A DNA stretch of 48,045 nucleotides, taken from NCBI GenBank assembly GCA_032718865.1, contig JALUTQ010000012.1, positions 1 through 48,045 on the forward strand, in the 5' to 3' direction. The translations under genes were made by a program, and so were the position numbers. The notes beneath the pieces were generated by a model, which worked only from the letters and a program-made list of their open reading frames with translations, had not been told where the DNA came from and did not search any database. This DNA comes from Tilletia caries. Its lineage: Eukaryota; Basidiomycota; Exobasidiomycetes; Tilletiales; Tilletiaceae. Positions 1,361 through 20,922 of the stretch are shown piece by piece. How positions within the stretch are numbered: position 1 is the stretch's first letter; each line of letters begins with the position of its first letter.

Positions 1361-4300
1361 TCAGACCCTGGGCCCTGATACATGAACGACGCCCGGTTCT
1401 GGGGAGGGTCGGTCATTTTTGGGATAAATGGGTGCTGTCCGAGCGAGACCCAAAATTTCACCAACGGGGGTGAATAAGAGCCGCCGAGTTCCAGGCGGTG
1501 TGCGGTCAAATGGGCGTTCAACTGCCTGAAGGCGGGCAGCTGCAGCCCCGCGGGCAATGTAAATAATCTGGCTTGAGAACGGAACGTTCTGGCAGACGTT
1601 CTGCAGTTGCTGCGGCACTGCGTCCCCAGGTGCAGGCAAGGTTACGTTGGGCTTCGGCAATGCAACAGTGATGTAGGCAGCCCCGTCAAAATCGTTATAG
1701 CTGTAAACAGCTGACCGGAACGGTGCGGGTGACTTTTCGTTGTGAATTGTCAGAGCCGTAAAGTGAAAGCCACCCAAGCTGGTCCCAACGATGCGTCCCA
1801 CTAACTCGTACTCTGTGTCTCCAACCTCAATAAGAGGCTCTACAGTCCAGCATCCGTCATGTGGCTGCGAGGGCAGTTCCACCATGAGGATTTTTCGGAA
1901 GGGAGACAGCAGAACAGGTTGCGTGAGAGGAGAGGGGACACCGCCCCAGTCCAAGCTGAGAGGACCTGCATTTCACAGCAGCAGAACGCTGTGTGAAAGC
2001 CAGAACGTTGGAATTGACCGAGTGATCGTTTCCCGCCCCGCTTAGCAACCCCAGGTCGCAGTGGCTAAAACGAGGCTGAGTCACATACTTGTGGCCAGCC
2101 TCGCAATTAGACACTTCTTGCTCCCCCCAAAGCAAAGAAAGCCTGCACCTGAAACTGAGTCTCCTCTGCGATGATGCGGCTGATCCACGCCCAGTTGCCA
2201 TGTTCCTGGGGCGCATACCATCTCATGGTCTGAATAACGTATTCAATGACCATATCTCGAGAGGCATTAATTTTTTTCTGCTGAGCAGCAGGGGTCTTGT
2301 GGCCGTAGGCACTTTCTCTCAGCTCCAGGGAAGCTGTGAGAATGCTGAGCCCACCCCCCCTGAACCATTTTGTCCTTCAGGGCCAACCACTCCTCCTTGC
2401 ACCTCAGGAAGGAGGCAAACAGGACTTCCAGAGCGCTTGTAATGTAACAAGTCTGGGCTGTGTGGCTATATGAGAGGACGTGACCAGGTGGGTGCTTCCT
2501 CTTCCGAACGGTCGGGACGTTCTGCATCGGGGAACGTATTTCAGTTAGCACACGGAATGAAACAAAACCTTCTGCCACCTGGGATTCGATTCTACTCCCT
2601 CACGCCTCAGGTCTCAGCACACAAAACAGGAAGCTTACCTGGGCAGTGGTTTCGGAGTCTGGCTGTGGAGCAGGCTCTTCTTTGGCTAGCTTTTTCTGCA
2701 GGTGAACATATTAAAAAGTTGAGTAATTGTCAGTGGCTATGTTTCGATATATAAGCAAGAAAAAGCGTTAGCCCTTTCCCCCCCGGGTAAACGTTGCTAT
2801 ATTGATGCTACACCGACCATCTGCCCCAGAGTCTCTGTGCGCGCGTGTAATTGAAACCAGCGAACAGCTAAAAGCGATCTCTAAGGCAGTATGGCCGATG
2901 ATGCAATAATATGCATGTTCGACGGGAAAGGGCTACTGTGTGCTGCTTTGCTCTCACCTCTGCCGCCTTCTGCGCCTTTTCCCCCCCTTCTTTAGATCCG
3001 CTGTAGAGTCCGGAGCTCTTCCATCGTTCTCGTAGCCCTCGGAGGGATCAGCCGCAGTGCGCTTCCGCCCCTTCTGCCTCTTGTCGGCTTGGTGTTTGTA
3101 CCTTGTGGCAATCCCCAGCTTCTCCGCTGCGTACTCATCCTCTAGAAGCTCCGCCAGCTCCTGAAGACACTGCAGCCCTGTGATGAGATCCATATTGGTC
3201 TCCCAGCACAAATAATATATGGAGTGCATGTTCTCCAACGCAGAGGTGGAAGTGGGGATCCGGTCCCACATGGCATCGTCCATCGTCTTTAAAGAACGAA
3301 AGATCATGCATGCAGTATCACACTGCAGCCACCATGCCAACCATTTCGTGCACTCTGGAAACTTGTTGAAGAGCGACGCAAACGTTGTGTGCAGAACGTC
3401 CTCGGTCTTCGCAGCTAGGGCAGCGTGGATGAGAGACATGAACGTGTCCTGCATCGTAACGCGCACAAAATTGCCGTTGTTTTTGACCCGTTTCACAGAC
3501 TGATGAAAGTGAAACAGGCAGCCCTTTAGCAGAGAAGCTGCATGAGCCTCAAAGCTGGCAATTTCAGCGTCCCGGGCGGCTTCGCTAAGGTCGGCCAGGC
3601 TAGTGAAACTAACCCGCCACCTAGCATAGGCCTTCTTGAACCCGTTCCGCTGGGCCAATGAGAAATCCACCACAGAGGCCATCTTATCCTCTACCTCCTT
3701 CCGTTTTAGACCATTGGCGGTCAGACACTCGAACATATAGTAAAAGTGCTGCGCAAAATCCTCCTCCTTCTGGCTTCGGAGGACGGTCCAGAGGATTGGA
3801 ACCCATCTACCCAAACGCACAGAAAATATGCTAGAAGTGCACAGATAGTAACGTTCCAAGACTCGAAACGTTACGTCTGTAAGAACACCCTCGTGCCTGA
3901 TGTTTGAGTCTGAGTCTTCAGATCGGTCATCACGTTGGCAGAACAGCTGATGCTGCCAAGGGGTCTGTAACACTACTGCAAAATCATCCCATAGGAAGCT
4001 TGCCCGCTTTAGGTGCAACTGCGAGGGAGTTCCCGCTTCCCTTGCTGCAGAAGCGTTCTGCTGGGTGTTCATGCCGTCTGACTCGGCATTACTAACCACA
4101 GTATCAGAAGGACGCTGGAGGTTCAGAAAATCCAGGAAGGGACCATCTCGAGAGCCATCACGTGGCTGAATGCCGGCATCTTTTAGGAAAGTGATGCGAT
4201 AGTATGACAAGCAATCCAAGTTAAGGAAAGCATCATCAATGTGCCGAGCAGGTGTTATTTTCCTTGTCACCTTCGATCCACTCTTTACCCTCCCTACACT

Positions 4301-5053
4301 CAGACCCTTGGCCTTCGTGTGGGGGTTCTCAGAGACTATCTTACGCAACTGTTCCTATGTAAATTAATTTAGAAGCTAGGTCAATAAACTATTCGAAATC
4401 GATCTAAGCGTAGATGCGTCTAGTTCGTACCTTGGAAGATGGACGTGGCTTATTGACGGGGGGGTTTCCCGTGGTCATGCTTGCCAATGTGTTCATAGAA
4501 CCCCAGACTAGTGTGAGTCTCAGGGTATGTCGTGAGCCGTAGCTCGGCACTGCACTTTTTGGTGCTGCAGAGCCCCGACTTCCCCAAGTTTTTTACAAAC
4601 GGAACAGCCTGCACTGATCCAGTCTGTTAAGACAGCCTTTCGGCTGGAGGTAGGGGCTCGGTGGACGGTTTCGCACCTGTCACACGTTAGCACCCCACGA
4701 CAGATCAGCCTATTCTCGCTGCCTCTTCCGAACCTCGTGTGATCGATTTTTGTGTGACCCGATCAGATCGAAAACACCAGTCGCTGTGAAACGCCCAGTC
4801 GGGGCAATCGTCGAGATTGAACGTGTGTTTGATGTTCCCGTCGGGAAAAAGAAGGGTAGCGTTCCGAAAACTGAGGATCGTATTCTTGATCGTCTTCGCT
4901 CATTCCATCTCCGTGCTCGCTCTTCTTCTCTGTCTCAGTCCGCCGTCTTTCACTAGCTTTGTCTGTATCACTATCGCTAATTTCAATGTCAGAATTCTTA
5001 TCGGGCTCTCGTTTGCCGCGGATACCAGCGTCCGAACGAGGCGAAGAAGACAT
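1361..5053 (-). CDS. MULE transposase with N-terminal WRKY-GCM1-type zinc finger and C-terminal C19 (USP-like) domain
   Basis: Exons read as 5053-4431, 4354-2958, 2695-2639 and 2521-1361, all with GT-AG introns; the product is about 1080 aa. After an acidic Ser/Asp/Glu-rich start comes a Cys/His module (LTCDRC, CSVC, QHQKC, ending GKHDHGKPP) of the GCM/WRKY-FLYWCH class used by MULE transposases for DNA binding. Exon 2 holds the RNase H-fold transposase: TDVTF (Asp 158 of its 464-codon frame), VVDFSLAQRNGF (Asp 228), GCLFHFHQS (Cys 277/His 280) and STSALENMH (Glu 372), a full DDE triad. Exons 3-4 add a charged linker and a C19-like domain: Cys box TAQTCYITSALEVL (Cys codon 2449-2447) and His box GGFHFTALT (His codon 1765-1763) followed by YSYNDFDG. 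Small frame breaks near 4535, 2980, 2350 and about 1950 are mostly homopolymer miscounts that the other arm corrects. The protease fusion is the unusual part. Confidence 0.8.
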
Positions 5054-5400
5054 AACAGAGAAAACGCGATGTGTTGGCTAGGAGAGGGAAAGAGACAGAG
5101 AAGAAGAGGAAGGAGACGCTAACGAGTAGCTGGTAGGTAGCTGCGAGGCGGGAGGTCAGAGCCGGAGGCGGAGGGAGAAAATTGTTTAAAGTTCGGAGGG
5201 CGGGATTTTGAGCGGCGGAGGTCAAAGTGCTGCAGGTGTCGAGATGGTGCGCGTACATAAGAACATTCTGTCCGGCGGAAAAAAACTTTTTCACATAGTC
5301 TGGCCAGACTGTGACCGAGTTCTGGAGGGGAATGATGAATAAACCACCAAAAAGGTGAGCGCCAACTGAGATTCCGAGTTGCGGTCAGCTTCAGGGCCAG
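5054..5400 (-). promoter_or_regulatory. Pyrimidine-rich leader/promoter of the element A gene
   Basis: Read on the minus strand, the 50-60 nt before the ATG at 5053 are a strong CT tract (CCTTCCTCTTCTTCTCTGTC), typical of fungal core promoters and 5' leaders. Further upstream lie a GC-rich stretch (5140-5230) and then the transition into the GTAAAA motif cluster. I see no convincing TATA box. The assignment rests on position and composition only. Confidence 0.4.
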
Positions 5401-5407
5401 CGACAGC

Positions 5408-5752
5408 CTTTACAGTGCCACGTGGTCTTCTCATAGTGCGGTAAAAGGCTCATCGTGCGGTAAAAATGAGGTTGCGGAAGCCGCTATGGGGACTTTTACC
5501 GCATCGGTCCCTTTACAGCGGCGGTAAAAGTTGCGATTGTACTGTAAAAATTCCGATTCAATCAAGTGGGGGCAAGACTTTTACCGCCGGGAGCCTTTAC
5601 AGTGGCTGTAAGAATTGGCCCTGACTGTAAAAGTTGGCGTTCGTGCGGTAAAAAGCCTCCGAGGCACTGTAAAATTCGCCTTCACCCTAACATGACCAAG
5701 ACTTTTACAGCATGACCTTTACAGTACTGTAAAACCTCACTGTAAAATTCCG
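5408..5752. repeat. Right cluster of GTAAAA-core motifs
   Basis: About seventeen copies of CTGTAAAA or GCGGTAAAA, in either orientation, occur in 345 bp, ending with a dense block at 5701-5752. Several occur as inverted pairs, for example TTTACAGTACTGTAAAA near 5720. The motif mix matches the cluster at 1-240, which is why both are taken as the two ends of element A. The rest of the interval has no coding potential. Confidence 0.8.
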
Positions 5753-5779
5753 TAGTGCCGTGCCAACCGGGCCAGTTCG

Positions 5780-5877
5780 CTATGGAACGCCGTTTTCACC
5801 ACCTTCGCTTTTCCCTTTTTCCCTTTTCGCTTTTCCCTTTTCGCTTTTCCCTTTTCGCTTTTCGCTTTTCGCTGCTT
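5780..5877 (+). repeat. Left terminal inverted repeat of element B
   Basis: The first 28 bp (CTATGGAACG through CACCACCTTCGC) match the right end in reverse complement. Then follow about eight units of CGCTTTTCCCTTTT or CGCTTTT, a short-period pyrimidine array. Unit number differs between the two ends and between arms, as expected for a slippage-prone array. Confidence 0.9.
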
Positions 5878-5965
5878 TAATATTTCCAATTCCATCAGCG
5901 CTCTATAATTCATCGTATGTACATCCTTCCCACCGTCCACCACAGTCTGCATTCTGGTTTCTGCC

Positions 5966-7769
5966 ATGACGGAGGTTTCACTCCTCACCGTCGAAGAGGT
6001 TACGGCTCTCCGTGAAGACATTTCGCGGGCTACCTCTCCCATTTCCCACTCCCTTTCTCAGACCACCTCTCCTGTCAACAGCGATATGCTTCTCATCTAT
6101 GAGTTGACCATTGAGGAGCTGTCCACGTCTCTTCGCTACTTGTCCCCTCGTCTCCATCCTCTAATTTTTGACAGCTTGTGGGTTCCACTTCAAGACTTGG
6201 CTCAGCAGCTGTCCTCTTTACAGCAACAAACGTCTGCCGGAACCTCAGATCCTAGTTCCATGTCTAGCGTGCAAGAGTGGGTCAAGGCGGACTCTGGTCA
6301 GTGGAAACTCAGCATCCCCGGCGAGCTCTTGCTGGAGCTTGTAGAGCTGGGTTTCCGGGATGCCGACATCGCCATCATGTTGGACTGCTCTCCTGGAACG
6401 ATATATCGCCGTCGCAAAGAGATGGGCATCGAGAAGTGGAACACTTCCATTGACGAGCAAGCTCTGATCGAGGTCAGTCCGTGCCCCTATTCCCTTGAAC
6501 TATGAACGTCACATCCTCATCATTCTCACAAATCGCGACTGTCTTCATCTACTATTTTAGCATCTTGTAAAATTACGCAGCATGCACAGCGACACGGTTG
6601 GCGAGCGAGGAACGATGGGTGCCTTAAACAGTCTTGGCATCCGGGTCAGCAGGTCAAAGTTGAGGACTGCGATCAAGGCCCTCGACCCGATCGGGGTTAC
6701 TTCTCGATGGACCAAGTATCTCAAGCGTCGGGAATACTATGTGCCCTTCGTCAACTCCCTGTGGCACATAGACGGGCATCACAAGCTGATAAGGTGGAAG
6801 ATTGTCATTCACGGTGCCATCGATGGCAAGAGCAGACTAGTTACCTTTCTACAAGCATCCGGCAACAACCGAGCGGAGACAGTGTCGGAGCTGTTCTTGC
6901 AGGCCGTGGAAAAACGAGGGTGGCCGAGTCGAGTCAGAGGAGATCATGGAGGAGAGAACTTGGGGGTTAAGAGGTTGATGGAGACGAAAAGAGGTTAGTG
7001 GTGTCGAGATTCGGGCTGTTCTCTGCGATGGTTAAAGGAAAGCTCATCAGATTGTGTTCAGGTCTCGACCGGGGCTCTTTCATCCAAGGCACCTCTACTC
7101 ACAATCAAAGGATCGAGCGTCTCTGGGTGGACCTCCGCAAGTGGACGGTGTCCAAGTACAAGTCTTGGTTCGAATATCTTGAGGACTGCGGTGTGCTGGA
7201 TATCGAGTCGGATATCCACTTGTGGGCGCTCCACTTTGTCTTCTTGCCGCAGTTGAATGGCGCGCTCGACCACTTTGTTGGAATGTGGAACCACCACAAG
7301 GTTCGAACTAAAGGAATGGGGAACCTGTCGCCAGAGCAGATGTACACTTTGGGTGAGTCCATGCGCGTAATTGTACGTCGAAGCACAGCTTGGGGTACTC
7401 ACTGATATGGTTATGAATCGTACTGGTGTCTGGTGGGGATGGAAAGGTTCTTGGGATGCTGCACGTCGGGGATTCGATGTCGGGCTGATGGATCGTGAGG
7501 AGAGGCAGGATCTGGAGGCGGCGGGCGTGGAGATGGGTGGTGAAGACTATGGCGTCGATGATGTTGTTGGGGAGGGGGGTTTGGATGAGTACGATGGCCC
7601 GCACGTCCACGTGGACCGGATAGAAGACCGCGTTCCTCCGGTTCTGAATCTGGAGGAGACTCGACACGGGTTATCGCAGCTGCTGCCTTCTCCGTCGTTC
7701 CCGCCTCCCGAAGACTTCGGCCTGCGTGCCTACTTGGATGTGCTGGATGCCATCAACGAGGTGTTGTAG
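5966..7769 (+). CDS. HTH-fused DD35E integrase/transposase of element B
   Basis: Four exons (5966-6472, 6561-6993, 7062-7352, 7447-7769) join in frame to 517 codons without correction. Residues 121-154 (LGFRDADIAIMLDCSPGTIY) form a helix-turn-helix that should bind DNA. The catalytic core follows: Asp 240 in LWHIDGHHKLIRWK, Asp 297 in VRGDHGGEN and Glu 332 in STHNQRIERLW, giving D-D-35-E spacing. Downstream come LHFVFLPQLNGALDHF and WNHH...LSPEQMY, which I recall as conserved in the HTH-plus-integrase-core proteins common in fungi and animals. The last 105 residues are acidic. The gene should cut and join element ends in the nucleus. It starts 186 bp inside the left terminus and converges on the zinc-finger gene with 25 bp between stops. 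All triad residues are present, so it may be active. Confidence 0.88.
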
Positions 7770-7794
7770 ATCACACAAACACAAGACAGATTTG

Positions 7795-9837
7795 TTAGCA
7801 TCTAGCATCGCCAGCCAAAAGCTGAGACTCATACAGATACTCACCATGCACGCCTCGAACGGAACGACCCTTGCGTTGCGAGTGGTCAGGAGACTGTCGT
7901 TGATGCGCGGTATCGTCGCTGGCATCTTCTGGTTGAAGAGATGTCAAAGATGAGCCGTCGGAAGCGTTGACTGAATTATCGATGATCTTGACGTCAGACT
8001 GGGCAATGCTCTTGGAACTGGTAGTGCCGCCGCCGCCCTTGGTGTTGTCGCTCGAGATGGTACGGTCGCCGTCGTTTGCGTTGCCGTCAAGGTCATCGTC
8101 CGACTCGAAGAAAGGCCCGTCGAGGGGGGGTCATCCTCTACTTGTTCCGTCTTTGGCATCACGAGCTCAATGTCGCTGTCGTCGATGTGGTTGACGTACT
8201 TGTATTCGCACCGTTTCTGTGTTAAGGAAAGGAAGGCTATCATGTTAGCCACGCTCATCGGAACATTCGCTGGCTCAGCTATCCAACATCCCAGACGTAA
8301 CATGAGACTCACCTTCTTCGGCCGACAACCCACTTCATGAGCTGCCAGAACGGACGTAGGAAAGGTGTTCCTACAGCGGTAACACTGGTCAAACTCCTTG
8401 TCCTGCGCTGATCGACTATCGGAATCTTCGCCGCTCATGGCACTGATGTTGGAGTCGTACTCGTCCTCGTGGCGGTGGCGCTTGGAGATCTTCGACAGAA
8501 GATTGTCGTAGATTTCTGCCTTGAGGTCGCTCTTGACAACGATGAAGCATTCGCGGCCGGTGAACTTAGCCTGAAGGCTTTGAGCGTTGATGAAGTCGAC
8601 GGCATGCTGCTCGTCGCTCCCAAGCGTGCGAAACTTGAGGTCGGAGGTGCTGAGACACGCAAATCTAAGTTAAGAGATGTATGCGTAAGTTAATGCGAGC
8701 TCAAGCATGTAGCGAGAGAAGTGAGGTTGTTAGTACTCACTCGTATCCGCATTGACCTTCCGTGCACAGTCGATGTCCGTGAGCTTCGAACTCTGACACG
8801 ATGATGCTGAACACTTCCTTAGCGTCCGCAGTCTTTGGAATGACCGGCCAGATCCGAAGCCGATGCTTGTCGACCAGGGTTTCGAATTGCTTTCCGGCTA
8901 TGCCCATGCGCAGGTTCTCGTCAAGAAGCCGACGGTCCTTGAGGAGGACGATACCCGAGCTGCTCTGGTCGCCCTTGCGTTTCTTGAAGACAATCGGTTG
9001 AACTGGTGCTTTTCGACCCGAGGATCCTTGTTCCGACTTCGAACCTGCGCCGGTGCCCCTTGAGATTGCCATCAGCTTGCCGTGCCTTGTCACGTGTCTT
9101 GCCGCTAAGCTGGTTGCTGTTGCCGGTGAAGGTCGAAGCTGCCCGTAAGACGGATGCCGGGCAGAAGGAAACCCCCTGCTTGCGAAGTGGCCTGGACCTT
9201 GAGAGTGCTGAGACGGCTGCGAGGTCGACGTGGCTGGCGAGCTCATTCGGAGCATTTGGAATTTGATGTCGTCCGCAGTGCCTCCCGAGGACGTGGACTG
9301 GAAGCGCATATCGGGGATGCCGGCGCTCGTCGTAGGCGCTGCGGCCGGGAAAGAATGCTGCGGCAGACCTGAGGCGTAGGACGTCGAAGGTCCCGGTCCC
9401 GCAAACATCGATCCACGGACTGGCTGTGACTGGACTGGAGCTGAGGAAGAGCAAAGTGAATCAGTAACTGGTTATGTCAGGCTCTTCTGGACCGAAGCAG
9501 GAGCTACTCACTAGTAGTACTGCCGTTGTCAGAGGGCCGAGGAGCTGTGGACTGGCCATAGAGACCTGAGTGGGCTTCCAGCAACTGAAGTCGCTCGGTG
9601 ACCTTGCCGAGCTTGCCGGAGACATCATCCACGTTGGTACCAACGTGGTTAACCTGCTTGAGAATTGCCGCGAGCGTGGCGTTGATATCCTATCCAAAAG
9701 AATACAGATGTCAGTCATACGATCAACGTGGACGTCTGCGACGGTAAGAATGGATGGAATGAACTCACGTTGTTGCTGTGCTGCCCTGTCGAATTACCAG
9801 CCGCGCTGGACGCAGGCTGTGTGCTGCGCGTATCCAT
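7795..9837 (-). CDS. C2HC zinc-finger, coiled-coil protein of element B
   Basis: Five exons (9837-9769, 9689-9512, 9440-8741, 8664-8313, 8216-7795) join across GT-AG introns to about 573 aa. A likely 5' UTR intron lies at 9956-9867. Residues about 24-70 (DINATLAAILKQV... to ...TERLQLLEAH) are heptad-like, suggesting a coiled coil. Then follow a Ser/Pro/Gln-rich segment, a basic KKRKGDQ-type patch, a compact domain (about 255-405), a zinc finger CX2CX11HX3C (Cys 410, Cys 413, His 425, Cys 429) and an acidic Asp/Ser-rich tail. One frame break at a C7 run near 8130 (complement) is probably a miscount: C8 or C5 gives an open frame to the TAA at 7797. I do not recognise the family. By position it may be a DNA-binding partner of the integrase. 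That is inference. Confidence 0.7.
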
Positions 9838-10400
9838 GATAACAAGCGCCTGATCGTGCCAAAATACTACGAAGATACGAGACAAGGAAGAGAGTAGCGC
9901 ATGTCAGCAAGGGGCCAAGACCGCAGCGAGAGCATTGGGGTGTGGAAGTAACTTACAGCAATGTAGTTCGCGCAGTCCAATCGTCCTCGAGTCTTGTCGC
10001 ACCGAACTCGCCGACGTCGTTGCACAGGTGCCACCGCACTGCTCGAGAGGGGACCAAAAGAAGCGAGTATCACAGGCCTGAGCCCAAAGAGCGCCAGACG
10101 GACAATGCGCTAGATGGTCCACACAGCTCAAGACTAGCGGCGACGAGGAGTGCCGCGACGTTGACGAGCCGAAGCGGCGAGGTAGGAGGAGAGGAGAGGA
10201 GAAGATACGCGCAGAGAGCCGATGGAGAGGAGAGGCGAGTATGGCCGGTAGTGTGAGTGTGGCAGAAGGCGTCGGAGGTAGAGGAAGGTAAGAGGTGAAA
10301 GGGCAGAGCTCAGAGGAGATGGTAGAAGAGAGGAAACTAGAGGGGGGGAGGGGGGGTGCTTCAGAGAACGGGCTGGAAGAAGGAAAAAGTGCCACATATA
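9838..10400 (-). promoter_or_regulatory. CT-rich promoter and leader of the zinc-finger gene
   Basis: On the minus strand this stretch is dominated by CTCCTCTCC-type tracts (10160-10350), followed near the gene by a candidate 5' UTR intron (GTAAGT at 9956, TTCGTAG ending 9867). Open frames here are low-complexity Ser/Pro/Leu shadows of the pyrimidine tracts. No TATA box stands out. Confidence 0.45.
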
Positions 10401-11707
10401 CGACCTTGTTCTTCGTCTGCGACCTGCGTGATGCATTCCTTGAATAAGGTACATGAAAAAAAGGCAAGAGACCCGGAAAGCCGGAACGGATGTAGCGAGG
10501 CGACGACGAGCGGAAGAATGTTATTGAGTTACATTAAAAGAATGTTTGGCTGGACCCTGATTTCTGTTCGGTCGATTATCGGGCTCGGACTCTCGGAGGT
10601 CGGGCCTCGAGGATGACTATATTAACTCAGCAGTCGCTGATCGCTGATCATCGGTCACTGTCGAAGGCAGAAGGTTGAGCTGGTTGCTTCACCTCATTAG
10701 AATGCGGTCTTGCACTCTCTCGAGTCTCGGACCTCGGTGATCGGTCTCCATATGTAGCGTTTCAGGAACTGAGGCGCAATAAACTAGAGTGCTTTGCAAT
10801 ATAGATGAGACAATTAATTTAGAGACAGAAGCGGGTAGCTGGCAGCCACCATTATACATTATTGCACACCGACAGGCGTCAATCCGCACAGATGAGCACA
10901 GTGATACACTTCTACCGGAAGGAGGCACGCCGCACGGCCAGTTGGCGTCAGCCTTCGAAGAAGTGTGGCTTGGCCTGGCCATTCGGGCGCCTTAGCTTAG
11001 AAAATGAAAACCCTGGTTCCTGAAACTTGAATATGCGAATTGTTAATCACGCCACACGGCCGGCCGACGCGGGGCGCGGCCTCACGTCGGCTGTCACGTC
11101 GGCGGTCAAACGAGAAGATGCGAATAATGAGATCTTTACGCGGGGCTGCCGGCTGAGAGTTAACACACTGAGACTTACTGAGTCACCACACCAGTGAGGT
11201 GACAAGCGGTCGTCGTTCGGGCTTCACCCATGAACCCATGCCTCATTTGTTATTTCGCATTGGCCAGCTTCAGACGATAACCCCTGTTTTGGTGCCTGTA
11301 ACCAGCGTACCAGCCGTGCAGTCGCTGGCGCTTGCCAAAGCCCAAATGGCATCGCAACAGCTGGTAGGGCTGACCGGGGAAGACTACAGTTCACAGTAGT
11401 CTAATTCATTATTGAAACAGAGTATGTAAAATCAGAACTCAGGAGGTGCGACGCGGGCGTAACCGCGCAACCGCGTAAGTCCCCCTCATCAATCCGTCGG
11501 ACGGCGGACCAGTGTATGTATCAAGCCTCATATGTTCCGGTCACCGAAATGCGGGAGCCCGTGCCCTATGGACTGTTCTCACTTCTCAGTGCGATGAGCG
11601 CCGGGGGCTGATCGGGCAGCGGAACCTACGCCGGAATATATGTATATGGATTGGATGTCCGATGTGATAGATGAACATCAGTCCAAACCTGCGCCCAAGT
11701 TGAAACA
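10401..11707. other. Intergenic part of element B without a recognised gene
   Basis: Two short open frames occur: 97 codons at 10982-10689 (-) and 66 codons at 11199-11399 (+). Neither has a recognisable motif, a splice context or a useful comparison, since the other arm is a copy and gives no conservation evidence. GC-rich blocks around 11050-11110 contain repeated ACGTCGGC motifs. The stretch probably holds the promoter of the basic protein gene at 11708. Confidence 0.5.
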
Positions 11708-12490
11708 ATGCGGAAAGAAAGACGGCAGCGTCTGCGTGAGCAAGCGGCGACGGCAAAGAAAGCAGCAGCAGCAGCGACGGCAGCGGCGGCGGCAGCAGCG
11801 GAAACGGCAGCCCAGTCAACCGGAACGGTCACGGAAGCAGCACACACGGGGGGGTTCAGCCTGAATCACGCTTGGATCGGCGACCATGTGGCCCAAAGCG
11901 CAAGATGTTACGGCTCCGCAATCGGCGCGGACAACCCAACGACCGACGACATACGGCACTCAACGAGCTACGTAGCAAACGGATCGAAGCCCAGCAAAAG
12001 GCGCTTCGGGCGGCGCAGCGAGAGGAGGTGAAACAGGCCCGGCTTCTTGCCAAAAAATTTGTGGAGGCGGAAGCAGCGGTTGAAGCGCCCGACGGATCCG
12101 AGGTGCGCATCAAGCCTCGACTCAGGCGGCCTCAGAAACAGCACCTGGAGGGGTTTGTGGTTCCAGACAACGAAGTCGGCCCACCTGTCAACCGAAGGGC
12201 AGCATACACCAAGTCTCTCTCGTAAGTTAACCATCTAAGTCCTCTGACTTTCAAATTGGGACGAGGCTGACAATAATCATAATTTATCCAATTGTCGAAC
12301 CCTGATCGACGTGCACCACAGGCTAAAGGTTGGCGCAGATCGTCATCAGCTCAATAAAACCATTCGCACCTTTCAGCCCGTCGACCACCACGCCGAGGCT
12401 ATGCTTAACTACCACCGCATCTGCGGCAGGTTAGATTATGGTACCCGCAGGACATTCCTCACACCCCCTAGTCAGCAAAGACGCAGGTGA
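11708..12490 (+). CDS. Basic Ala-rich protein of unknown function, element B
   Basis: Two exons, 11708-12221 and 12322-12490, give about 226 aa once a G7 run near 11850 is read as the G5 seen in the other arm. The start is strongly basic (MRKERRQRLREQ), then a CAG/GCGG tract encodes poly-Ala, then an Arg/Lys-rich helix-forming segment (RSKRIEAQQKALRAAQREEV) and a Pro/Arg region; exon 2 ends with LNYHRICGR and a short tail. The CAG tract is open in other frames as Gln/Arg-rich sequence, so the N-terminus is uncertain; an alternative start at 11640 reads into the Gln/Arg frame. The frame choice rests on continuity into the downstream exon. No family is recognised. The charge suggests nucleic-acid binding. 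It converges on the RGG/Gly-Ala-X gene. Confidence 0.5.
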
Positions 12491-12661
12491 CCCGCCTATG
12501 ACTGATGATCGATGACTGCGTTCTCCATCCCCTCTTCTCTCATGTCCAAGCGGCAAGCCTCTAGTAACCGAAAACACACTTGTACCGGGCACCAGACCGA
12601 CCCATGTGCTTGAAGACTCTGATGTGTGCTTCCGATGGGTCCACAACTGGCACTGACGTCC

Positions 12662-13122
12662 CTACTTCATTACTTTGCCGTTCTCGCCAGCAGCACCAGC
12701 CGCACCAGCCGCATCAGGCGCATCAGGCGCACCAGCAGCACCAGAAGCACCAGCAGCACCAGCCGCACTAGACGCACCAGCAGCACCAGCAGCACCAGAG
12801 GCCCCAGGCGCACCAGCAGCACGAGCGTCACCAGCAGCATCGGGCGCACCAGCAGCACCAGGCGCACCAGACGCACCAGGCGCGCTCGTTTCGATTCGGG
12901 TAGGCGCGACACCGGCAGCGCCAGCGGCAGTGGAAGCAGGTTCCAGGTCGGCACCGCGGCGCCCAGCAGCAGCAACTTGCTTACCGCCTCTTCCTCCTCG
13001 TCCACCTTCACAGGACACAGTCGCAAAAAAAATAATAATTAGCACAGGCCACTAACACTTTTGGTGAGTTTACCCTATGATCTATGGAACGTACCTTTGC
13101 GCGCCACTCCTTTCTGACTCAT
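12662..13122 (-). CDS. Small RGG plus Gly-Ala-X repeat protein, element B
   Basis: Exon 1 is 13122-13095 (MSQKGVARK), the intron 13094-13006, and exon 2 13005-12662; total 123 aa. After the basic start comes an RGG-type patch (GGRGGRGGK), then about 30 triplets of the form Gly-Ala-Ala/Ser/Pro or Asp-Ala-X, ending GENGKVMK. The triplet period resembles collagen-like or silk-like repeats, while the N-terminus looks nucleic-acid binding; there is no signal peptide. The 9-bp GC-rich period leaves all six frames open, and the + strand frames here are shadows. The frame was chosen because it joins a short ATG exon over a consensus intron and lies 105 bp downstream of a TATA box. The frame stays open in both arms. 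Function unknown. Confidence 0.6.
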
Positions 13123-13226
13123 TGTGTCTGTGATTGGGCCAGAGAGGCGAGCAGGTGAGGGATTGGGTCTTGGGAGCAAGAGAGTGGGGATTTGGTAAAG
13201 GGGGGGCATCAGGTGAGAGCGGTTCC

Positions 13227-13232
13227 TTTATA
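13227..13232 (-). promoter_or_regulatory. TATA box (TATAAA) of the RGG/Gly-Ala-X gene
   Basis: On the minus strand GTCCTTATAAAGGAACC lies 105 bp upstream of the ATG at 13122, a usual distance for fungal RNA polymerase II promoters. Its presence is one reason for accepting this small gene. Confidence 0.6.
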
Positions 13233-13239
13233 AGGACTT

Positions 13240-14629
13240 CTACATACACATCACACTCTCGTCCATCGACCATCGCTGAGTGCTTACTGAGCTCCACCCA
13301 CCGGCTGATTTTTCCTTTTTGTTCTTTCTGGCCCCGCAGATCACACCGTAATCAGCTTCGATGCCGTAGGTTGAACGGTGAACCGCTGGAGTCTACCGCT
13401 GTACTGCATGCGTCCTGCTGAGTGCTAACCTTCTTCTGTTCCTCGTCGTTCGCGTCCGACCTGAGGTTGCATTGATTTATGATTCATTGATTGATTTTTG
13501 CAGATAGCTCTTGGCTACTAACTGACTGGCTAACCATCACCTTTCCTTTGTGCTCAAGTCTCGACAGTGCCTCGCTGAGCTGTCTGTTAACCCTCCCGCA
13601 GAGCTCACGCTGAGATTCTCGTTCACTCACATCCTCTCCTTTCCTGTTTCTGTTGCTGATTACCAGATTCTTACAACCTTACGTGTCCGGGTGTTGGGAA
13701 CTTGGGAATGCATTGGGAACGACAATTTGCTGAGAGGAGGTATGTGCTACGAAAACGAAAGAGTCGTGAAGTGACACGTCCAACACTCCCCCAACCCTTT
13801 CCTCCTGCCCCGTTCTCAACTCTTCCTTCGAGTTTCCAGCCCTTTTCTCACTTTTCAGTTCTTGACAGCAGCACTCTGCACGCTACACTCTGCACTCGCT
13901 GACTGTTTTCTCTTCACAAACCGTAATCACCGTTGACCCTCTCTCTTTCTATCTTCGCCGCTGTGACCATGATTTGATACAGTACTGCAACGGCCAACGG
14001 ATTGCATACCTCAGGGCTCAGCAGACAGCAGCTGCTCTTGATATTGGAGACCTGCATATTGTGCCCGCGTTTGTGCTTGCTCGCTGACCTCTTTCAAAAT
14101 CTGACTGAATGCTGAATTTCCCTTAGGAGTCAGGGCTCAGATGCACCAGTGTTGATCGAATCCTGTTTGTCTGCAGCAACTCTTCAATCTGGAGTCTGGG
14201 CTCTGACTGTCATTTTTCATTTTCAGCAGTTACAGGTGGGCGTGGACGTGGACCCGGGACAGCCGACAGACATGGGCCATCGCTGTTGCGTCTTCTCCAT
14301 GACTTGAGGCAAGCCCTCAAGCCCCTCAACCCTCACCCACAGCACACAGGCCACACTCCACAGCATCTTCCATCGACCATATTTGCGGCACGCTCGGCTG
14401 GTATCCCTGTTCGACTCGGCTCCCTTTTTTTCCGCTCGACTTACTCTGATGCGATCATGCACCCGCCACCCAGCACCCCAGTCCATACTCCATAGACTGT
14501 GGTTGCATCTCTTCCCTCAATACATAGTTGACATTGAATAGAATCTGATTCATTCATTCATTCGTTCATTACTGACTTGTGTGCGAGGCCTGAGTGCGAG
14601 CTGCAATGGAAGAAGGGGTATGGGTGAGC
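13240..14629. other. Long segment of element B without a recognised gene
   Basis: Short frames (74 codons at 13550, 87 codons at 14486-14223 on minus, others) have no motifs and are interrupted. The sequence has a mild T/C bias with repeated CTGAGTGC and CTCTGCAC-like words near 13860-13910, and a run of four ATTC repeats (14552-14570). I see nothing assignable. Confidence 0.5.
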
Positions 14630-14765
14630 CCTGCGCGCGGTCTGCGCGCGCCCCAGGGCTCGCGCGGGGGTGCGCGACCACCGCACGAACGCTGCGGCGC
14701 GCAGACTTCGCACGGAGTCAGTGTGCGGGGTCCTCGCACGGTGCTCGCGCACCCCCGTGCGACTG
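14630..14765. repeat. GC-rich hairpin-forming block near the right end of element B
   Basis: The block is rich in GTGCGCG and CGCGCA words. GGGGGTGCGCGA near 14667 is the exact reverse complement of TCGCGCACCCCC near 14744, giving a 12-bp stem with a loop of about 65 nt; further inverted words (TGCGCGCGG, CGCGCAGAC) lie inside. It sits about 190 bp from the right terminus. Confidence 0.6.
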
Positions 14766-14877
14766 ACTACCTAATCCCCGATGAATCTACACTCCCTTTG
14801 GCGTCGGAAACCTCTTGACTGAGTCCCGTTCCTCTCCGTTCCGAGGGGCCCGGGAGATTCCAACTGAGCTGAAGCTG

Positions 14878-14956
14878 AAGAAGCGAAAAGCGAAAAGGGA
14901 AAAAGCGAAAAAGGGAAAAGGGAAAAAGCGAAGGTGGTGAAAACGGCGTTCCATAG
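14878..14956 (-). repeat. Right terminal inverted repeat of element B
   Basis: An array of GCGAAAAGGGAAAAA units (14880-14930) is followed by GAAGGTGGTGAAAACGGCGT and then CCATAG. This is the reverse complement of the left end at 5780. TTCG follows at 14957-14960. Confidence 0.9.
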
Positions 14957-14960
14957 TTCG

Positions 14961-15386
14961 CCAGCACTCAGTACTCAGTCTCAGCAAAAAGTTGCGGCGG
15001 TTAACCAGAGGTATACCGTCGGCTGTATCCATGCCTCTGTAACGCCGGTGGTTAGCCTCCGACTTTATCGCTGGATCGCCGCTGGTTTTTGCTCACTCTG
15101 TCCGGTTGGCCGCTGGTCACCATCTGAGCGAATAAGACTCGTTTCTACACCCGGCGGTTCTCGGCGGCAGCTCAGCGGCTATGCCGCTACCCCATCCTCA
15201 CCGCCTCACCGTTCCTGGCGGCGTCACCCATTTGTCCGTCTGTGCGGACACCCGTCCGTCCTGCCTCAGGTTGCAGCGCCTGTCCCTACACTCTGCCAGC
15301 CTGCACACGGGTGACTACATCCTCAGCGTGCCATCTGTTCTCGTCACTCCTGTTTAGAAATCGCGTTAAACGACGTTGTTGCGTCT
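14961..15386. other. Segment between element B and the LINE
   Basis: No gene, RNA or repeat is recognised. It is moderately GC-rich with many GCGGC/GCCGC words and no long frame with recognisable content. Its right limit is set at a run of eight T, which on the minus strand is A8 and could be the 3' tail of the LINE. Confidence 0.4.
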
Positions 15387-18900: not shown

Positions 18901-20922
18901 ACGGAGGAAGCTGGGGGGGCATCCTGCGGTCGTGAGCGTGGCCCACAGCCAGGGGTGTCCCACGCGATCGTACGCCTTCTGTTGGTCTAGTAGAAGGAGG
19001 AAGAAGGAGGTTGGCTGCTCGGGCTGGGTTTGGTTTGAGAGGTCCTGTGGTTGCGAGAGGATCGAGTGGGGGCGGTCCTGTCCGAAGTGGTCAATGATGC
19101 CCTGGAGAGTCCCCGAGATTAGAGATGTCCGGCGGCCGGGCATGAAGGCTGCCTGGTTCCATGGCAGGGCGTGGCCCGTTGCTGTTTGGAGGCGCTGGGC
19201 CGCCATTCTTGTTATGGTTCGGATCGTGGTGTCCGAGACGGATATCGGTCTGTAGTTCGCCAGGTCAGCCTTGTCGCCCTTCTTGTGGAGTAGGGTGGTT
19301 TGGAGGAGTACGTTGAGCGGTTGACCATGCCGCATGCCCTCGGCGAGGCTGAGAAGGTGGGGTCCCGTTGTTTTCAGCGTAAGGGTGAGGAAGGAGTAGC
19401 CCAGGCCGGTGGGTCCAGGGGAGGAGTACGGGTTGGAGGCTCGGATCGCTGATGTGAGTTCCTCCTTTGTGAATGGGGCATCGAGTAGGTTGATGTCCGC
19501 CAGTGAAAACCGTGTGTGGGAAGCTTGAAGGAGGCGAGCTTGGCACCAGTCTTGGGAGGGGTGCTTCGGTGGTATGGAGTATAAGTCTGCAAAGAAGGCG
19601 TAAGCTATCCGTCGCATAGAGTCTGGGTCTGTTGTGGTTCGGCCCTGATTGTCTCGTAGGCGGGATATGGTGTGGGAACCGCCAGTTTTTGTGAGGGAGG
19701 TGGTTATCCATGACGATGGGCGAAAAACGTTGAGGGTCTTCTGGTTTGTCGTTCTGATTGCGGACGATGTGTGTACCTGTTGTCGTGCTTTGTGAAGGCG
19801 TGACATTAGAGATGGGAGCTTGAGAGCTTCCGAGGGGTCTGGAAGGAAAAGGGCTTTAATTTCTTGTTCCAGGGTCGTCACGCTCTCTCGGAGAGACAAG
19901 AGTCGTTTGCCGACCCGGGTTGATTCGGTGCGGGCTACGTCCCGAAGTCGGAGGATGTAGTTCTCCCATGTTACCACTCGATCGTTGTCCCGTATATTGG
20001 TGGGTGGTGGGCCGATTTCCGCGCATGTGTTTAGGATCGTGTTGCAGAATTGAAGGTCGTTCATTATGCCGGGGTGGAGGGTCCAGGGGTGGGTGTGGGT
20101 ATTTGGTTCTTTTTGCAAAGGCGACGTTGAGGGAAAAGCTAACCGCCGCCGCGTGGTGGTCCGACGATGTCGGTGTGAAACGAGGATGTTTTTGAGAAGG
20201 GGAGGAGGCGCCTGGATGCCCAGATGGAGTCAATGCGTTTCGCGGACGTGATCCGCCCTGCCGCATTTAGGACGATGCGGGTGTATTGGCGGTGTTCAGG
20301 AAAGATGTATCGGTAGGTGTCTTCGACGTCCAGTGGGATGAGTGAAGGGGCGATCAGGTGCCATGGGCACGAGCAGGTGGTGCCGGTAAGGGAGTCTCGG
20401 AGTGGGGAGGGGGGTAGAATTCCAATCCGCTCCGATGATTGTGTCAATCGATTTGTGGTAGAGGTCCCGAGCTCGGGGCCACTCGGTATCCCAGAACGAT
20501 AGGTCGGTGACCGGGCCGTGTATGGACCAGAGGTCGATAGTCGTGATGGCCGCGGACCCCGTACCGAGCGGTCGAATCGTTGCTTCAGCGTAAGCCCATC
20601 TTGGGCCATGGGCGGCGGTAGTGGGCTGTACTGCGGAGGTGAGGAAGAGGATACCTGCATCCGATGTCAGGATGGCGCGGTAGGAGGAGTGGTAGAAGGT
20701 ACCTAAGATGGTGGATAAGGCGTGGTCATCTGTGATGGTGATGGGTTCTGTGATAAAGCATTCCTGGAGGAAGATGATATCAGCGTTGGCCAGAGCAGAG
20801 TCTTTGGTTAAGAAGATGTCAGCTAAACGTCGGCGGAGGCCAGCTTTTCCGCAGTTGAAGGTTGCTACCTTCAGTGGCTTTGTTTCTGTCGGGGTTGCAG
20901 AGACAAGTGTCATTGTGCGCAT
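15924..20922 (-). pseudogene. LINE ORF2: endonuclease-reverse transcriptase, broken
   Basis: The endonuclease starts LKVATFNCGK after an ATG at 20922, with FLQECF, GADWN, RIDSIWAS and SDHHAA marking the catalytic and DNA-contact motifs. The reverse transcriptase lies in a 986-codon frame (20118-17158): SSPGPTGLGY, NYRPISVS, LLLLDQQKAYDRV (Asp codon 18987-18985), GALQGDPLS and LAFADDVAI (FADD at about 18690-18679). After a C9 run near 17358 the frame moves to one ending with a CX4CX7HX4C motif (CPHPSC...HSFLIC), then ALTTL, where the hAT element splits the gene; it resumes as HALGVAF and stops at 15924. Breaks at the GADWN segment and just after SDHHAA are the same in both arms, so they look like real decay. 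The enzyme would nick DNA and reverse-transcribe LINE RNA. Confidence 0.88.
16312..17104. mobile_element. hAT-type MITE inserted in LINE ORF2
   Basis: The 777-bp element 16320-17096 has 18-bp inverted termini TAAGGAAGAGCACGGAGT, which fit the hAT end pattern YARNG. It is flanked by the exact 8-bp duplication GAGCGTGG (16312-16319 and 17097-17104), the hAT hallmark. The interior has no transposase but many copies of CCGGAAT, GGAATGCGGAAT and CCCCGGAAT concentrated near both ends, resembling hAT subterminal binding motifs. Removing the element and one duplication rejoins the LINE reading ...ALTTL-HALGV... in frame. Confidence 0.95.

What the first reader, a model, noticed from the sequence alone, without database searches (positions are those of the whole stretch)
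5776..14960. Four-gene integrase transposon with a 4-bp target duplication
The element has matching termini, a TTCG duplication, an integrase with intact HTH and DD35E residues that splices in frame without correction, and three further genes I cannot assign: C2HC/coiled-coil, basic Ala-rich, and RGG plus Gly-Ala-X. The genes form two convergent pairs. Simple integrase-type DNA transposons usually carry one or two genes, so a conserved four-gene cargo would be a new kind of element.
Basis: partly seen in the sequence, partly recalled or inferred. Interest (0 to 1): 0.85.

Follow-up and report, generated by a model that had tools for sequence, protein, structure and literature searches.

The report
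Fungal IS3EU transposon with changeable cargo
This is a real jumping gene of a wheat-bunt-type fungus, a member of the known IS3EU group; it carries an integrase and a steady partner gene, but of its other two supposed genes one is found only in this family and one is a captured scrap of another gene, so it is not a new kind of element.

Summary
The element is real (window 5781-14955), but it is an IS3EU transposon, a known superfamily. Of 13 end-paired elements with these ends in the same genome, 10 have perfect 6-bp duplications. The 517-aa integrase is Pfam rva_4; a relative models with a retroviral-integrase fold. The host is a Tilletia. The four-gene set is not conserved. Integrase and gene B occur in 5 of 5 independent full-length copies, are under purifying selection, form a complete 5.1-kb element in a second family and recur together in a third. 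Gene C was found only in this family; its frame is interrupted in the window copy, but open copies and a T. indica relative exist. Gene D is the truncated front of another gene: 2.1 kb, 97% identical to a locus on contig C21. Sister copies carry a different segment there, related to contig C28. The right arm thus looks like a replaceable cargo bay. The whole window is a palindromic contig that repeats a C23 locus.

The parts
5775..5780 (.). left target-site duplication GTTCGC
   Evidence: identical to 14956-14961; 6-bp register 6/6 in 10 of 13 paired elements
5781..5880 (+). left terminal inverted repeat TATGGAACGCCGTTTTCACC... with CTTTTCCC/CTTTTCGC subterminal repeats
5966..6472 (+). integrase exon 1 (169 aa, HTH)
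6561..6993 (+). integrase exon 2 (catalytic D240, D297)
   Evidence: rva_4 PF24764 8.5e-36
7062..7352 (+). integrase exon 3 (catalytic E332)
7447..7770 (+). integrase exon 4 with stop
7841..8216 (-). gene B exon 5 (acidic tail; reads differently in the window copy from sister copies)
   Evidence: end placed by eye
8313..8649 (-). gene B exon 4 (conserved domain; C2HC pattern by eye)
8741..9440 (-). gene B exon 3
9512..9689 (-). gene B exon 2 (coiled-coil look, by eye)
9769..9837 (-). gene B exon 1 with ATG
11708..12221 (+). gene C exon 1 (basic, Ala-rich; frame interrupted in this copy, open in C36, C39, C27b and C3 copies)
12322..12490 (+). gene C exon 2
   Evidence: in frame in the C39 (226 aa) and C3 (230 aa) copies; resembles the C-terminus of T. 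indica P0005 by eye
12687..14786 (.). captured 2.1-kb segment, 97.1% identical to C21:815836-817929
12662..13005 (-). gene D exon 2: RGG and Gly-Ala-Pro repeat, truncated front of a longer gene; its last codons lie outside the captured segment
13095..13122 (-). gene D exon 1 with ATG
   Evidence: splice sites read by eye
14883..14955 (-). right terminal inverted repeat ...CGGCGTTCCATA
14956..14961 (.). right target-site duplication GTTCGC

Best explanation
It is an IS3EU DNA transposon of a Tilletia fungus. Its integrase (HTH plus DDE core) binds the long inverted ends, cuts the element out or copies it, and joins it to staggered target sites, giving 6-bp duplications; it probably also moves the 2-kb relatives that have the same ends but none of the four genes. 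Its core is two convergent genes: the integrase and a fast-evolving partner, protein B (coiled-coil look, conserved domain, C2HC pattern; in other families a PHD-like finger lies downstream), which I infer helps the integrase choose or bind chromatin targets. Gene C is a third gene limited to this family. Gene D and the rest of the right arm are passengers: segments copied from elsewhere in the genome that replace one another between gene C and the right end.
Against: No tree with Repbase IS3EU transposases could be made. B's fold could not be modelled (pLDDT 37). The window family's B shows no PHD hit; PHD hits in other families are below Pfam's cut-off, and that they belong to the same gene as B is assumed. 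B-like ORFs next to two more divergent integrases (C15, C1:473k) are not statistically supported (E 0.18, and no hit at E 1). C shows no significant purifying selection (0.58, p 0.23; above 1 with few changes against close copies). Paired elements C3 and C5, and the second copy of the second family, lack duplications. The integrase of C27b is broken by inserted DNA.
Confidence: 0.8

Rival explanations
1. A new kind of element: a four-gene transposon in which all four proteins are needed for movement.
For: B and C were found only at integrase elements in this genome, and D is shared by two independent full-length copies plus the C3 derivative.
Against: D is a truncated piece of a gene whose family has matches at about 20 places and is absent in 3 of 5 full-length copies; a complete second family has only integrase and B; ends and duplication are those of IS3EU.
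Confidence: 0.03
2. The integrase alone moves the element; B, C and D are all passengers, B being an old one that persisted by chance.
For: B diverges faster than the integrase's catalytic exons between families (31-34% against 57-78% identity), though not by much faster than integrase exon 1 (36-47%); simple IS3-like elements move with little more than a transposase (established knowledge).
Against: B has the same convergent position in three families and low dN/dS (0.43, p 0.004; 0.08, p 0.0003).
Confidence: 0.2
3. Polinton/Maverick-like or LTR-retrotransposon-derived element.
For: Retroviral-type integrase core; 6-bp duplications also occur in Polintons.
Against: No polymerase, protease, ATPase, capsid or reverse transcriptase hit above chance in the 8 window ORFs scanned; inverted, not direct, terminal repeats; TA..TA ends as in IS3EU.
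Confidence: 0.02
4. Chimaera of nested insertions or an assembly artefact.
For: The window contig is a palindrome with many gaps between its arms.
Against: The same structure is found on C36, C39, C5 and C27b with other flanks, three of these four with their own 6/6 duplications.
Confidence: 0.02

Closest known systems
IS3EU (Repbase superfamily; joined with GingerRoot in PMC10045372)
   Same: TA..TA ends, TAYGG..CCRTA in fungi, inverted repeats over 30 bp, 6-bp duplications, DDE integrase core without an HHCC motif
   Different: partner gene B in the place where TET-carrying rust families have an alpha-kinase; exchangeable right arm
TET/JBP-carrying IS3EU of rust fungi (PMC12730594, passages)
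   Same: several genes; a second gene in opposite orientation to the transposase
   Different: no kinase hit here (alpha-kinase search negative but with silent controls); TET/JBP was not searched for in the genome, none among the window ORFs scanned
Pack-MULEs and other gene-capturing transposons (recalled)
   Same: fragments of other genes carried between the ends, different fragments in sister copies
   Different: the capture sits in an element that also has its integrase; mechanism unknown
Ginger1/Ginger2, Polinton
   Same: retroviral-type integrase
   Different: 4-5 bp duplications (Ginger) or a self-synthesising gene set (Polinton, recalled)

Membership tests
IS3EU | termini TA..TA, TAYGG..CCRTA in fungal families | tested here: met
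   TATGG..CCATA at both ends in 11 of 13 paired elements; left end is GATGG in C5 and TGTGG in C22
IS3EU | 6-bp target-site duplications | tested here: met
   10 of 13 paired elements 6/6; C22 5/6 by eye (the script misplaced its end), C5 3/6, C3 1/6; second family 1 of 2
IS3EU | inverted repeats longer than 30 bp | tested here: met
   48 nt at 96% in the window copy
IS3EU | DDE integrase-type transposase without HHCC zinc motif | tested here: met
   rva_4, D-D-E residues, fold of a relative; absence of HHCC read by eye
IS3EU | transposase groups with IS3EU/GingerRoot in a tree | not testable with these tools
   Repbase sequences and paper supplements not available here
Ginger1/Ginger2 | 4- or 5-bp duplications | tested here: not met
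   6 bp
Polinton/Maverick | DNA polymerase B, ATPase, protease, capsid genes (recalled) | tested here: not met
   no such Pfam hit above chance among the 8 window ORFs scanned
SLX9 ribosome-biogenesis protein (UniRef's label for the T. indica relative of gene C) | Pfam SLX9 PF15341 | tested here: not met
   P0003 and P0005 give no SLX9 hit at E 1; the genome's own SLX9 match is at C21:417258 and gene C does not align to it beyond chance (E 0.5)

The most novel reading that the evidence does not exclude
IS3EU elements of fungi have an obligatory two-protein machinery: the integrase plus a modular partner encoded convergently, whose front part is kept while its effector end is exchanged (acidic tail or PHD-like histone reader in Tilletia, alpha-kinase in rusts), so that the partner sets where the element lands or how it escapes silencing; and the element's right arm is a docking bay that repeatedly captures and replaces fragments of other genes.
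Probability: 0.2. Interest if true: 0.65.

Novelty: new variant of a known kind. Interest (0 to 1): 0.4.

Why it matters
It settles an apparent 'new kind of transposon' as IS3EU, corrects the duplication length, and separates a conserved two-gene core from passengers. The unnamed partner protein B, convergent with the integrase in three families and under constraint, is a testable candidate for a targeting factor of a eukaryotic integrase transposon. The swapped right arms point to gene-fragment capture in a superfamily for which the passages I read describe carriage of TET/JBP and alpha-kinase genes.

Tried and rejected
Four-base duplication TTCG: rejected, the register is 6 bp. Gene C as SLX9: rejected. 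Gene D as a functional fourth gene: rejected. C11b and the C23 copy as independent insertions: rejected. Structure of B: the AlphaFold2 model on a 4-row alignment failed (pLDDT 37), so no fold search was made with it. Relatives in viral contigs: 18 pattern matches, none confirmed. Alpha-kinase in this genome: none at E 0.01, but the control genomes were silent too, so nothing follows. B-like genes at C15 and C1:473k: only suggestive. Paper searches: on Tilletia with transposon terms (0 papers with all 4 terms; 12 of 1,548 listed), on IS3EU with partner-protein terms (9 of 9 listed; 12 of 116 listed), and two general ones (25 of 94; 25 of 222); in the lists seen, no title or abstract start describes these Tilletia elements or gene B. 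Supplements could not be read. A resemblance of B to partner proteins of animal integrase elements came to mind from memory and was not tested.

Full report
What is there. The window lies on contig C11 of an unnamed 38.1-Mb genome of 40 contigs. Protein relatives at 91-96% identity are from Tilletia caries, T. controversa and T. laevis, so the host is a Tilletia of that group. A 38.18-Mb T. caries assembly is described in PMC10684912 (start of abstract in a search listing only); identity with it was not tested.

Ends and duplication. The inverted arms are 5780-5827 and 14909-14956. A search of the whole genome with the first 29 nt, up to 3 mismatches, gave 30 places; the reversed pattern gave none. 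They make 13 pairs; the other 4 are single ends (the second window copy, the C23 copy at 590.7k, and lone ends on C25 and C40). The base before TATGG is C, G or T. Read from TATGG to CCATA, 10 of 13 pairs have identical 6-bp flanks: C11, C36, C39, C23 (788k), C27a, C27b, C7, C25, C32a, C32b. C22 reads 5/6 by eye (the script misplaced its left end), C5 3/6, C3 1/6. Two of the 13 have a changed left end (C5 GATGG, C22 TGTGG). Hence the element is 5781-14955 with the duplication GTTCGC.

One locus, seen three times. The window aligns to its own reverse complement from end to end: 97.4% over 48,467 columns, 387 mismatches, 850 gap letters. C23:581300-591023, flanks included, matches the window with 1 mismatch plus gaps. 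So I take the two copies in the window and the C23 copy as one insertion; the contig is probably a fold-back artefact or a redundant contig. Window 19000-20000 also occurs twice, inverted, on C23 itself, so a shorter inverted repeat there may be real. Of 589 gap runs between the arms 186 lie in homopolymers, so frames in this contig must be read with care.

Membership. PMC12730594 (passages) describes IS3EU of rust fungi: 6-bp duplications, inverted repeats over 30 bp, ends TAYGG..CCRTA, and, in TET-carrying families, a TET/JBP gene between the transposase and an alpha-kinase gene in opposite orientation. PMC10045372 (passages) gives TA..TA ends, usually 6-bp duplications and no HHCC motif for IS3EU, and joins it with GingerRoot. 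The element meets the features that could be tested; the transposase tree could not be made.

Which genes recur. Counting each insertion once, there are 5 full-length copies (C11/C23, C36, C39, C5, C27b) and 2 deletion derivatives (C3, C23 788k). Integrase, B and C are present in 5 of 5, D in 2 of 5. C27b is interrupted by inserted DNA, once within integrase exon 3. In C3 the D reading frame is cut by other DNA and integrase and B are partial; the C23 derivative keeps integrase sequence only. Reading frame of C exon 1: open throughout in C36, C39, C27b and C3, interrupted or shifted in C11a, C11b, C23 and C5.

Gene B. A genome search at E 0.001 found B in these copies and, at 30-33% identity, at three other places, each near an integrase. 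One, C1:231802-236885, is a complete 5084-bp element with perfect ends TATGGAACGCCGTTTCGGCCACCT, 6/6 duplication AACGCC, integrase and B convergent, and no match to C or D. Its copy at C1:1703359-1709076 has no duplication (1/6). The third is a large, interrupted element on C25, whose ends I did not find. A profile from these three families finds its own members; outside them it ranks a C15 ORF at E 0.18 and gives no hit at C1:473k among 4787 ORFs, so B there is only suggested by position and cysteine pattern (by eye). PHD-finger hits lie downstream of B in the C25 (9e-5), C1 (0.0099) and C15 (0.031) elements, below Pfam's cut-off. Pfam gave no PHD for the window's B or for P0001, and structure prediction failed. 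External relatives found: two, T. caries 352 aa and T. controversa 255 aa, only the 7993 candidates sharing most words having been scored.

Selection. Against the most diverged copy (C39 with C27b) dN/dS is 0.27 for the integrase (p 7e-7), 0.43 for B (p 0.004) and 0.58 for C (p 0.23). C39 with C36: B 0.08 (p 0.0003), integrase 0.39 (p 0.07), C 1.42 (p 1.0). In the other comparisons, all against C39, B ranges 0.20-0.43, integrase 0.22-0.79, and C 1.4-2.2 with 5-7 changes each (C11b was not included, C3 and the C23 copies are partial, p-values only for the six pairs named). So integrase and B are constrained; C is not shown to be.

Gene C. It has two exons; the second is in frame in C39 (226 aa) and C3 (230 aa), and reads off in another frame in C36 and C27b. 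In the genome it was found only in this family: 14 matches at E 0.01, in 8 assembled copies. Relatives: T. controversa 171 aa (92%), T. laevis 106 aa (94%) and T. indica 212 aa (48%). UniRef's name SLX9 for the last is not supported. Whether the T. indica gene is in an element is unknown.

Gene D and the right arm. Element 6908-9007 (window 12687-14786) is 97.1% identical to C21:815836-817929, where the same start runs on into a longer gene, and pieces are about 94% identical to a C15 locus. The gene beyond the repeat has 22 matches at about 20 places, identity down to 30%. Thus D is the front of that gene plus its upstream DNA, and its last codons and stop lie outside the captured segment. 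In C39 and C5 homology to the window copy stops at 6906 and resumes at 9005: another segment lies there, matching C28:867651-868936 and C28:873073-873782 at 95-97% and, in C39, containing a repeat of about 769 bp found at 37 or more other places. C27b has a third arm without match to the other two beyond short stretches. C28 shows no integrase or end match, so it is more likely donor than element, but the direction of copying is inferred.

How it probably works. Shown: structure, ends, duplications, conserved catalytic residues, insertions at different sites, relatives with the same ends and none of the four genes. Inferred: end binding by the integrase through its HTH and the subterminal repeats; two-ended strand transfer with a 6-bp stagger; movement of the 2-kb elements in trans; B as a partner for chromatin or DNA binding; replacement of the right arm by template switching or gap repair during transposition.

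Verdict. A well-formed IS3EU family in Tilletia, probably recently active (independent copies up to 98% alike, inferred). Not a new kind of element, but with a partner gene that I did not find described (searches, lists partly capped) and a swapped cargo arm.

Noticed in passing
window 1-48045: The whole window is an inverted duplication of itself (97.4%, mostly gaps); its stretches tested repeat C23 (581300-591023 and about 594.8k); probably an assembly fold-back or redundant contig.
   Followed up: partly
C27:207859-219675 (L039, L040): An 11.8-kb element with the same ends is a 2-kb element interrupted by about 9.8 kb that includes a 685-aa ORF resembling a Pif1-type helicase (by eye, not tested), possibly a Helitron.
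   Followed up: partly
C7:1645948, C25:1112419, C32:652890, C32:678529, C22:753638 (L043-L047): A non-autonomous subfamily of about 2.0 kb: four copies 96-98% alike, C22 81-83% over 1.2 kb; 6/6 duplications in 4 of 5.
   Followed up: partly
C39:785055-788555 (L033): A repeat of about 769 bp inside the right arm of the C39 copy has 37 or more other copies at 89-99% identity in the genome.
   Followed up: no
C21:817589-818395 (L053) and about 20 places in all: The parent family of gene D is a multi-copy gene family of unknown nature, with open frames up to 833 aa.
   Followed up: no
window 5400-5760: Flank left of the element is full of short TTTACAGT/ACTGTAAA and GCGGTAAAAG repeats in both orientations (by eye).
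   Followed up: no
window 2954-4354: A 466-aa ORF on the minus strand beside the element, without a Pfam match.
   Followed up: no
window 14660-14762: A 29-nt GC-rich inverted repeat (86%) in the captured segment close to the right end.
   Followed up: no
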